A stretch of 64,000 bases of DNA from Inhella crocodyli (GTDB taxonomy: Bacteria; Pseudomonadota; Gammaproteobacteria; Burkholderiales; Burkholderiaceae_C), in assembly GCF_004004565.1 (NCBI RefSeq), contig NZ_SACM01000006.1:1-64000 (forward strand), read 5' to 3'. The translations under genes were made by a program, and so were the position numbers. Below the pieces are notes generated by a model. The model was given only the letters and a program-made list of their open reading frames with translations. It did not search any database and was not told where the DNA came from. This document shows positions 8,586 to 35,885 of this stretch, one piece after another. Each line of letters opens with the position of its first letter. Within the stretch, counting starts at the first letter, position 1.

Positions 8586-10612
8586 GCCGCCGCGTCCCCA
8601 CTCGGTTCGGCGTCGGCCAGGTCGACCGCCACCACGACGGGGGCGGCCGCAGCCTGGGCCTCGTCGTCGTCGTCCGCATCCGATTCGGGGGCGTCCTGGA
8701 CGGCCAGGCGCTCCAACAGGCGGGCGTGCAACTCCAGGGTCAGCAGGTCGATGCCGGTGACTTGCACGCGAACCCCGTCTCCCCGCCCCAGGGCCTCGAC
8801 CCCGAGGGCCTTGAACACCAGGGGCAGTTCGTCGGCGCGCACCAAGCCCAGGTCGTTGCGCATCACCTTCGCCGTCAGCGTGGTGGTGCCCGATTGCTGA
8901 AGCTGGCGCAGGCACCAGTAGCGTTCGATCTGTTGCTGGAAGCCGTTGTAGGCGGTGTAGGCCGCGTCGAAGCTGCTCAAGATGGCGAACAGTTCGGCGT
9001 CCTTGGGCTTGAACGGGGCCACGAGCGCGGCCGTTCGGCCGTGGCGGATGGCGGCGATGAGCTGCCACTGGTTGACCAGGTCCACGTACCGGCGCAAGGG
9101 CGAGGTGCTCCAGGCGTACGCCGGCACGCCCATGCCGGCGTGGGGCAGGGGCTTGACGCCCATGCGCACCTTGATGCCCGGGGCCAGGCTGGCCTGGCTG
9201 CGGTACAGCGCCGGCACGCCCAATTCGCCCAACCACAGCCCCCAGGTGCTGTTGGCCAAGATCATGGCTTCGGCCACGATCAGGTCGAGCGCCGTGCCGC
9301 GCGCGCGCACGCTGATGTGCACGGTCTCGTCGCCCGTGGGCGGGGCGTCGCGCTCGCCGTCCAGCTTGAAGCTGTAATCGGGGCGGTTGAAGGTCTCGGG
9401 CTTGCCGCGCACGGCCTCGCGGCCGGCCTTGAGATGACGCGCCAGACGGTGAGCAAAGGCGAGCTCGGGGGCGAAGGCGTAGTCGGCGGGCGCTTCGCCC
9501 GTGAGGCTGGCCTCGGTGACGATGCCGTCGAGCTTGTCGTGGCGCAGGTTGGCCACGATGGGCACCTGCTCCAAGCGGCTTTCCGTCCCCTTGACCTCGA
9601 GCGTCGCTTCGTCGAGCGTGACGTACAGGCTCAGGGCGGGGCAGTCGCGCCCTTCGACCAGCGTGTAGCGTTGGACCACGCTGTCGGGCAGCATGGTGAT
9701 CTTCCAGCCCGGCATGTACACGGTGGACAGGCGCTGGCGCGCGAGCTGGTCCAAGGGCGAGCCCGGTGCGATGGCCAAGCCCGGTGCCGCGATGTGCACG
9801 CCGAAGGTGACCGTGCCGCTGCCCAGGCCTTGGACCGACAGCGCGTCGTCGATTTCCGTGGTGCTGCTGTCGTCGATCGAGAACGCCGCCACGTCGGCAC
9901 GCGGCAGGGGGTCCACGGCGGGCGCTTCCAAGGCCGGGAAGCCCGTGCCCTTGGGGAAGTGCTCGAACAAGAAGCGCTGCCAGTGGAAGCTGTAGGGGCT
10001 GGTGATCGCCCCGGCGCTTTGCAGCAGGTCCAACGGGGCCCGCTTGGCGAGCAAGGCGGCCTGCACCAAGGCTTTGTACTCGGGGCCGTTCTTGTCGGGC
10101 TTGAACAGCAACTTGTAAATCTGGCCTTGCAGCGCCTCGGGGCAACGACCCGCCACAAGCTCCGCCGTCCACTGCTCGATCTGCAGGTTTTGCAGCCGGC
10201 GCTTTTCCAGACCGGCCAAGGCGGCTTGCACCTGCTCTTGGGGGGCCTTCTTGAATTGGCCGCCCTTGCCAGCGCGGCGGAAGTAGTGCGGCGCGCCCGT
10301 CAGGGCCAACCAGCAGGCCAGCTGTTGGTCCAGGCCGGCGGTCTCGCTGAAGTAATCGCGCGCCAGATCGGCGTAGCCAAACTCCCCTTCCGGGGCGAAT
10401 TCCCAGGCGAGGTCCAGGTCGAAGCCGTCGGCCAGGGCTTGCGCGGCCTGGATCAAGCTGGCTGGCGCCGGCTTGTCGAACTTGGCCAGCAGCTGGGCCT
10501 GCTTGATCTTGACCCGTTTGCCGGAGTCGAGCTCCAGCTGCAGCGTGGCGTCCGCTTCGGAAAGGATGCGGCCGCCTTGTGCTTTGCCGCTGTCGTCATA
10601 CAACCCGTACAT
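8582..10612 (-). CDS. RNase II-family (RNB domain) exoribonuclease
   Basis: A 676-residue protein. The central RNB catalytic domain carries the signature SIDDSSTTEIDDALSV with the metal-binding aspartates. The C-terminal part (GDGVRVQVTGIDLLTLELHA) resembles an S1-type RNA-binding fold. The N-terminus differs from E. coli RNase R, and the usual basic C-terminal tail is missing; it ends in an acidic, alanine-rich tail instead. It likely degrades RNA 3' to 5'. The ATG at 10610-10612 starts MYGLYDDSG, and 38 bases separate it from the upstream metallo-hydrolase gene. Confidence 0.9.
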   Translation of the reverse strand: MYGLYDDSGKAQGGRILSEADATLQLELDSGKRVKIKQAQLLAKFDKPAPASLIQAAQALADGFDLDLAWEFAPEGEFGYADLARDYFSETAGLDQQLACWLALTGAPHYFRRAGKGGQFKKAPQEQVQAALAGLEKRRLQNLQIEQWTAELVAGRCPEALQGQIYKLLFKPDKNGPEYKALVQAALLAKRAPLDLLQSAGAITSPYSFHWQRFLFEHFPKGTGFPALEAPAVDPLPRADVAAFSIDDSSTTEIDDALSVQGLGSGTVTFGVHIAAPGLAIAPGSPLDQLARQRLSTVYMPGWKITMLPDSVVQRYTLVEGRDCPALSLYVTLDEATLEVKGTESRLEQVPIVANLRHDKLDGIVTEASLTGEAPADYAFAPELAFAHRLARHLKAGREAVRGKPETFNRPDYSFKLDGERDAPPTGDETVHISVRARGTALDLIVAEAMILANSTWGLWLGELGVPALYRSQASLAPGIKVRMGVKPLPHAGMGVPAYAWSTSPLRRYVDLVNQWQLIAAIRHGRTAALVAPFKPKDAELFAILSSFDAAYTAYNGFQQQIERYWCLRQLQQSGTTTLTAKVMRNDLGLVRADELPLVFKALGVEALGRGDGVRVQVTGIDLLTLELHARLLERLAVQDAPESDADDDDEAQAAAAPVVVAVDLADAEPSGDAAA

Positions 10613-35239: not shown

Positions 35240-35271
35240 CACTCGCGGCCGCTGAGCGGTTTCAGCGAGTG
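35240..35271. terminator. Hairpin between the convergent GGDEF gene and small gene
   Basis: Inner stem CGCTGA (35250-35255) with TCAGCG (35262-35267) is extended by CACT (35240-35243) with AGTG (35268-35271). There is no T-run on either side, so termination is uncertain. It overlaps the stop codon of the small minus-strand gene. Confidence 0.35.
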
Positions 35272-35480
35272 AGAGGGGTTTCAGCAGGTCGGCGCAATCT
35301 GAGGCGCCGTTCTCCGCCCGCCTCGAGCCAGGTCTCGAAGCGGCAGGGGCGCACCTCCAGGCCAGGCAGGATGGCGTTGGCCACGGCGGGCGGGCGAATG
35401 AGGCCGCGTTGACGCAGCACTTCCAACGCCCAAAGGGGCGCGAGGACGACGGAGCGGTGAGCGATGGGCATGACCGGCAT
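35262..35480 (-). CDS. Small protein with GLEV-F-WL-AGG motif
   Basis: A 72-residue protein I do not recognise. Its C-terminal half, GLEVRPCRFETWLEAGGERR, is clearly similar to GLEVADSSFGAWLAAGGDRR in the divergent gene at 35574-35885. No signal peptide or membrane segment is visible. ATG at 35478-35480 is used; another lies three codons in. Codon use is somewhat less GC-rich at the third position than in neighbouring genes. Resemblance to its neighbour is the main reason to regard it as real. Confidence 0.55.
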   Translation of the reverse strand: MPVMPIAHRSVVLAPLWALEVLRQRGLIRPPAVANAILPGLEVRPCRFETWLEAGGERRLRLRRPAETPLTR

Positions 35481-35509
35481 GTTCCGAGTTCAAGGCCCTG
35501 ACGGCCATC

Positions 35510-35537
35510 CCCCCCAAGGGGCCCCACCTTTGGGGGG
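35510..35537. promoter_or_regulatory. Inverted repeat between the two small divergent genes
   Basis: CCCCCCAAGG (35510-35519) and CCTTTGGGGGG (35527-35537) pair with one bulged base around a 7-base loop. The repeat lies in the 93-base region from which both small genes are read, so it could be an operator or a generic GC-rich Burkholderiales hairpin. Confidence 0.4.
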
Positions 35538-35573
35538 CTGGGAGGCGGGGTGTGCGCTGGGCACAGTGGTGCC

Positions 35574-35885
35574 ATGAACCGACCTCAACGCCCCAGCAGT
35601 GCCCTTCTTGCACGCCCGGCGTCCCAAGCCATGGGCAGTCCCATCCCCGCCGAAGGCGACCCGCGAGCGCCTGTACCGGCCATCGCTGGATTGGAGGTCG
35701 CCGACAGTTCTTTCGGGGCATGGCTGGCCGCCGGCGGCGACCGGCGTCAAACCGTGTCCGGACCTCGGACCGCCTGGACGCCGGAGCAGCGCGCCCACCG
35801 CACCGTGGAAGTTCAGCGCGAGGCCCGGCAGCGGTTGGGCGTGGCCAACTGGGACACCCTGCGCCCCCAGACCCTCAAACGCTGA
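35574..35885 (+). CDS. Small protein related to the divergent neighbour (GLEV-F-WL-AGG motif)
   Basis: A 103-residue protein of unknown function. The motif GLEVADSSFGAWLAAGGDRR sits mid-protein, preceded by PVPAIA, where the divergent neighbour has NAILP. A basic, glutamine-rich helical tail follows (TPEQRAHRTVEVQREARQRL). No signal peptide or cofactor motif is seen. An ATG at 35574 was chosen; the Shine-Dalgarno sequence is poor. About 77 percent of third codon positions are G or C by a rough count, lower than the core genes, which suggests accessory DNA. Confidence 0.55.
   Translation: MNRPQRPSSALLARPASQAMGSPIPAEGDPRAPVPAIAGLEVADSSFGAWLAAGGDRRQTVSGPRTAWTPEQRAHRTVEVQREARQRLGVANWDTLRPQTLKR

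What the first reader, a model, noticed from the sequence alone, without database searches (positions are those of the whole stretch)
35262..35885. Divergent pair of small related proteins with a shared motif
The minus-strand product (72 aa) and plus-strand product (103 aa) share GLEV....F..WL.AGG.RR at a similar spacing after an ALP/AIA context. They are read away from a common 93-base region containing an inverted repeat. Both have weaker codon bias than core genes and follow the Chp/c-di-GMP cluster. I do not recognise the family; duplicate divergent small genes hint at an unexplored module.
Basis: partly seen in the sequence, partly recalled or inferred. Interest (0 to 1): 0.6.

Follow-up and report, generated by a model that had tools for sequence, protein, structure and literature searches.

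The report
Co-regulated small-protein family, unknown function
The two small genes are real members of an undescribed protein family found in Roseateles-type bacteria, nearly every copy of which sits behind the same unusual on-switch, and in related bacteria that same switch sits before a previously unlisted candidate small RNA.

Summary
The two divergent ORFs share LxGLEVxxxxFxxWLxAGGxRR far beyond chance, and they are protein-coding. They belong to a small-protein family (about 55-103 aa, core GLEV[DE]S[ST][WF]xxW) with no match in Pfam, NCBIfam, PHROGs, PADLOC or the PDB. It was found in 18 of 351 genomes of the window's family (8 of 141 genera; named examples Roseateles, Mitsuaria, Paucibacter) and in no other genome of 300 drawn across the order. 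The host genome has seven copies, including a second, inverted copy of the same divergent pair.

Most copies carry the same signature: a C/G dyad ending GGGATGG, about 19 nt, then a -10-like element with A and T at the sigma70-critical positions. It passes leave-one-genus-out testing. A search with the promoter alone found a family member the protein profile had missed. In genera where the profile found no GLEV gene, the same signature precedes a conserved, unlisted sRNA candidate. In the window the dyads of the two promoters lie back to back, and both mRNAs are predicted leaderless.

The Chp/c-di-GMP link is not supported. I read the proteins as small effectors switched on by an unidentified activator; their target is unknown.

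The parts
35262..35471 (-).
   Evidence: Paralogue at L016 plus strand; dN/dS 0.33 between the two. Start chosen because the upstream ATG overlaps the predicted -10.
35574..35885 (+). GLEV-family gene B, 103 aa (MNRPQRPSS...IAGLEVADSSFGAWLAAGGDRR...)
   Evidence: Paralogue at L016 minus strand; dN/dS 0.32.
35472..35573 (.). 102-nt shared divergent promoter region
35524..35541 (+). Promoter-proximal C/G dyad of gene B, CCACCTTTGGGGGGCTGG (predicted activator site, about -50 to -33)
   Evidence: Held-out score 14.3 against shuffle mean 0.5, p 0.01, the smallest value 100 shuffles allow; also returned by the family-wide pattern search.
35562..35567 (+). Predicted -10 hexamer of gene B, CACAGT, 6 nt before the ATG (leaderless)
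35505..35522 (-). Promoter-proximal dyad of gene A, GCCCCTTGGGGGGGATGG
   Evidence: Held-out score 11.6 against shuffle mean 0.9, p 0.02.
35523..35536 (-). Distal dyad of gene A, CCCCCAAAGGTGGG, exactly 14 bp upstream of the proximal one; overlaps gene B's proximal dyad
   Evidence: Same 14-bp tandem offset in L028, L032, L033, L038, L067, L080, L106.
35479..35484 (-). Predicted -10 hexamer of gene A, GAACAT, 7 nt before ATG 35471 (leaderless); weakest element of the set

Best explanation
The pair is a divergon of two members of a lineage-restricted family of small, enzyme-less effector proteins. Both are transcribed from back-to-back sigma70-type promoters that lack a normal -35 and depend on an unidentified activator. 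The activator binds C/G dyads centred near -43.5 (class II geometry); the two proximal dyads sit next to each other, so one binding event or a cooperative one would switch both genes on. The messages are leaderless or nearly so. The proteins consist of a variable, often basic N-terminal helix, a linker, and the nearly invariant segment LxGLEVxDSxWxxW, which is an extended stretch followed by an N-capped helix. I infer that this segment is the docking motif for one common cellular partner, and that the variable parts give each paralogue its own output. Shown: homology, coding selection, copy number, promoter signature and spacing. Inferred: activator dependence, leaderless start, docking to a partner, effector role.
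For: Family and copies. Coding: orthologue dN/dS 0.13-0.37. Promoter: leave-one-genus-out two-block matrix beats at least 97 of 100 shuffles in 33 of 39 copies; window genus combined p 8e-12. The dyad-to--10 gap is 19 nt in 27 of 32 copies, 18 or 20 in the rest; A and T at the sigma70-critical -10 positions in 32 of 32 fitted sites; ATG 6-8 nt after the hexamer in 10 of 11 copies of this genus. Predictive test: a promoter-only pattern in 19 genomes returned, besides three sites at known GLEV genes, an unlisted member in Paucibacter (L150...LHSLEVTESTWGEWEQAM...). Specificity: 7 of 11 pattern hits in the genus are GLEV genes; 6 of 9 in 11 Roseateles-type genomes, 0 reversed-pattern controls. 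AlphaFold2 gives helices at the N-terminus and in the conserved segment and no compact fold (pTM 0.28-0.29).
Against: No activator was identified. No transcription start is known. Six or seven copies show no convincing promoter (L014, L046, L047, L069, L071, with L050 and L087 ambiguous). The starting consensus of the matrix was read by eye from all copies, so the hold-out is not fully blind. Partner and function are unknown, and a docking motif is only one reading of a conserved segment. Gene A's -10 is poor.
Confidence: 0.45

Rival explanations
1. The GLEV proteins are themselves the DNA-binding regulators: each copy autoregulates through its own dyad.
For: In genomes that have the family the strict promoter pattern hits mostly the GLEV genes. 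The proteins are basic in this genus.
Against: The same dyad promoter occurs in genera g139 and g142, where the family profile reported no GLEV gene, before an sRNA candidate. The predicted structures show no helix-turn-helix or ribbon-helix-helix. N-terminal parts are not conserved between paralogues.
Confidence: 0.12
2. A two-gene toxin-antitoxin or other antagonistic pair.
For: Small, divergent, adjacent genes; two copies of the pair in one genome (L016).
Against: Both genes belong to one family; most copies elsewhere stand alone; no PADLOC or other family match.
Confidence: 0.06
3. The transcripts act mainly as RNAs, or are dual-function RNAs, as the same promoter drives an sRNA candidate in other genera.
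For: Shared promoter with the sRNA candidate, including one such site in a GLEV-bearing Paucibacter genome.
Against: Clear purifying selection on the protein; GLEV transcripts share no stretch I could see with the sRNA candidate; no Rfam match.
Confidence: 0.12
4. Chance ORFs in G+C-rich DNA.
For: High G+C (68%) gives many spurious ORFs; GC3 is lower than in the neighbouring genes.
Against: Paralogues and homologues across genera, dN/dS well below 1, conserved promoters.
Confidence: 0.02

Closest known systems
Class II activator-dependent sigma70 promoters (the lux-box and CRP-type geometry; from general knowledge)
   Same: Dyad centred near -43.5 overlapping the -35 region, no -35 consensus, -10 element at fixed distance.
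   Different: The dyad sequence CMCCC-N4-GGTGGGATGG matches no operator I know; tandem dyads 14 bp apart in several copies; the activator is unknown.
Multi-copy lineage-restricted small regulatory proteins (general class, for example adaptor and connector proteins)
   Same: Under 110 aa, dispersed paralogues, one short conserved segment, variable remainder, one shared control element.
   Different: No sequence relation to any catalogued family.
Activator-controlled bacterial sRNAs with intrinsic terminators
   Same: In genera g139 and g142 the same promoter precedes a 110-150 nt intergenic transcript candidate ending in a terminator.
   Different: In the window the product is a protein; the sRNA candidate itself matches no Rfam family.

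Membership tests
GLEV small-protein family (defined here) | Core LxGLEVx[DE]SxWxxW-type segment recognised by the profile | tested here: met
   Gene B 3.9e-12, gene A 9.9e-13 with profile A3, though both are rows of that profile; A-B pair alone 8e-7.
GLEV small-protein family (defined here) | Dyad - 19 nt - -10 promoter signature | tested here: met
   Held-out p 0.01 (B) and 0.02 (A), training excluded the whole genus.
Class II activator-dependent promoter | Activator site overlapping -35 with fixed spacing to the -10 | tested here: met
   Sequence geometry only.
Class II activator-dependent promoter | Activation by a bound protein | not testable with these tools
   Needs reporter and binding assays.
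Toxin-antitoxin pair | Two unrelated proteins, one toxic, always adjacent | tested here: not met
   Both products are related and most copies are single; toxicity itself not testable here.
Chp / c-di-GMP module | Conserved linkage to the Chp or diguanylate cyclase genes | tested here: not met
   Absent downstream of the same cyclase in the five other genomes of the genus.
Leaderless mRNA | Transcription start at or within 1-2 nt of the start codon | not testable with these tools
   Predicted from 6-8 nt between hexamer and ATG in 10 of 11 copies of this genus.

The most novel reading that the evidence does not exclude
One undescribed activator runs a regulon whose output changed kind during evolution: a small RNA in some genera of the window's taxonomic family, and expanding families of small docking proteins, partly as divergons with leaderless mRNAs, in the Roseateles lineage and the window's genus.
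Probability: 0.35. Interest if true: 0.7.

Novelty: new variant of a known kind. Interest (0 to 1): 0.55.

Why it matters
It defines an unannotated protein family together with its control element, so the regulator, the inducing condition and the partner become directly testable. If the same switch drives an sRNA in one genus and small proteins in another, it would be a concrete case of a regulon changing its output molecule. The promoter also works as a gene finder: it already found a member that the protein profile had missed.

Tried and rejected
Pfam, NCBIfam, PHROGs, PADLOC and PDB sequence searches gave nothing usable. Rfam at a permissive threshold gave nothing on the element; the hits were tRNAs, a cspA-like leader and weak chance matches. 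A first promoter pattern had the wrong spacing and returned nothing. A pattern from one operator, TCCCACCAAAGGGGGATGG with 3 mismatches, found only its own site in the genome. Locating the -10 from the dyad block alone was blurred because the distal tandem dyad often scores higher. Neighbour clustering found only synteny among close species, no shared partner gene. Structure models were too loose for a fold search (pTM 0.28-0.29), so none was run. Two literature searches found nothing relevant. Sigma28, sigma54 and ECF readings of the promoter were considered and dropped for spacing or missing -35/-12 elements.

Full report
Check of the observation. Both ORFs exist and align over a 22-residue stretch, LPGLEVRPCRFETWLEAGGERR against IAGLEVADSSFGAWLAAGGDRR. 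No shuffle of the two sequences reached the score in 2000 trials, and 3 of 4000 random ORF pairs of the window did. The common region holds an inverted repeat, which resolves into two C/G dyads.

A family. Searches of 61 related genomes found further copies in the same genome and genus. The host genome has seven copies by profile. One is a second divergent pair about 115 kb away on the same contig, in the opposite orientation: its plus-strand gene resembles the window's minus gene (54% identity), and its minus-strand gene resembles the window's plus gene. The DNA of the two pairs aligns in two blocks, 67% over gene A and 80% over 45 bp of gene B, and not in the promoter region. A profile search with the tight core brought in more distant relatives with the core LxGLEVxDSTWxEWE. 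A wider profile found the family in 18 of 351 genomes of the taxonomic family, 8 of 141 genera, and in no other genome of 300 drawn across the order. A degenerate DNA pattern gave names: Roseateles, Mitsuaria, Paucibacter and unnamed Burkholderiales; the Actinomycetota and Streptomyces hits of that scan were not examined and are probably chance. The window's own genus could not be named. No family library or solved structure matches.

Coding. Orthologue pairs within genera have dN/dS 0.13 to 0.37 at dS 0.2-0.8; more distant pairs reach 0.62-0.65. The window's two genes against their paralogues give 0.33 and 0.32, at dS above 1, so those two are rough. Lengths are 55-103 aa. The variable N-terminus often contains a basic helix such as QRILRQTEVLLQRR. 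AlphaFold2 models of 69 and 74 residues show helices in the N-terminal part and in the conserved segment, and no compact fold (pTM 0.29 and 0.28).

Promoter. Reading the upstream DNA of the copies side by side showed a common signature: CMCCC-N4-GGTGGGATGG, about 19 nt, then a -10-like heptamer such as CGATAGT, CGATGCT or GCACAGT. A two-block matrix trained without the tested genus scored above at least 97 of 100 dinucleotide shuffles in 33 of 39 copies; the window's genus alone gave a combined p of 8e-12. The gap is 19 nt in 27 of 32 fitted sites and 18 or 20 in the rest; A and T occupy the two sigma70-critical positions in all 32, a figure that is partly the result of fitting. In eight copies a clear second dyad lies exactly 14 bp upstream. 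In this genus the ATG follows the hexamer by 6-8 nt in 10 of 11 copies, which predicts leaderless mRNAs; in Roseateles-type genomes the ATG lies 22-32 nt after the hexamer, usually with a ribosome-binding site. In the window, gene A's proximal dyad is 35505-35522 on the minus strand and gene B's is 35524-35541 on the plus strand, so each doubles as the other's distal site. Limits: the starting consensus was taken by eye from all copies, and copies L014, L046, L047, L069 and L071 have no supported promoter (L050 and L087 are ambiguous).

Predictive tests. With the spacing corrected, a pattern search of six genomes of the genus gave 11 hits, 7 of them GLEV genes, against 4 reversed-pattern controls. 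The other four hits precede a caspase-like gene, a transporter-like gene and two short unrelated frames, and look like chance. A Roseateles-type pattern in 11 genomes gave 9 hits, 6 GLEV genes, no control. A tandem-dyad pattern in 19 genomes returned five sites: three at known GLEV genes (one of them, in G005, read from the strand opposite the gene), one elsewhere, and one in front of a GLEV-family gene not previously listed, in Paucibacter (L150). A broader pattern over 401 genomes of the family hit 17 genomes against 2 controls. Several of these hits are in genera g139 and g142, where the profile reported no GLEV gene, and precede a conserved intergenic transcript candidate: GTTGCTGTCACAAC near the start, then TCCCAACGAYGTCC, a short hairpin, and a GGTGGCTTTTTTTT terminator. 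A shorter relative lies behind the same promoter in a GLEV-bearing Paucibacter genome (L125). Rfam has no such family. So the activator that the promoter implies is older or wider than the GLEV family.

Surroundings. In the other five genomes of the genus the diguanylate cyclase upstream of the window pair is followed by a TetR-type regulator (four) or an unrelated gene (one), with no GLEV gene. Paralogues elsewhere have no common neighbours beyond local synteny among close species. The Chp/c-di-GMP association is therefore specific to this genome.

Mechanism. Best supported is activator-switched expression of small effector proteins that share one docking segment. The expression part rests on sequence evidence; the docking part is inference from conservation of a short segment in otherwise variable proteins without a fold. 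Autoregulation by the proteins themselves is less likely, since the promoter exists in genomes where no GLEV gene was found. A toxin-antitoxin pair is unlikely because both products are of one family and most copies are single. A dual RNA role cannot be excluded.

Noticed in passing
L162, L163, L176, L177, L178 (downstream of about position 1500 on the promoter strand); L125:1545-1650: Unlisted sRNA candidate of about 100-150 nt behind the same dyad promoter in genera g139, g142 and in a Paucibacter genome, with conserved TCCCAACGAYGTCC, hairpin and terminator; in g142 it lies beside a CopD-type membrane protein gene (named from memory of the sequence type).
   Followed up: partly
G000:C14:149580-150133 (L016 about 8600-9130): Second divergent GLEV pair in the same genome, inverted relative to the window pair, apparently a duplication of the whole divergon.
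   Followed up: yes
L108 (G000:C9:1602210): Caspase-like (peptidase C14) gene preceded by GGGGGATGG and a -10-like CACAAT, but without the upstream half of the dyad; probably chance.
   Followed up: partly
L164 (G105:C16:73246): Perfect dyad promoter (CCCCCCAAAGGGGGATAG) about 230 nt before a MerR-type regulator gene, with a CGCTGTCACGC stretch like that of the sRNA candidate in between.
   Followed up: no
L023:2636-2970: cspA-like thermoregulator leader (below Rfam's gathering score) before a cold-shock protein gene close to the GLEV copy at C11:420 kb.
   Followed up: no
L175 (G261:C53:92533): Perfect dyad CCCCCAAATGGGGGATGG upstream of a diguanylate-cyclase-like ORF in genus g25.
   Followed up: no
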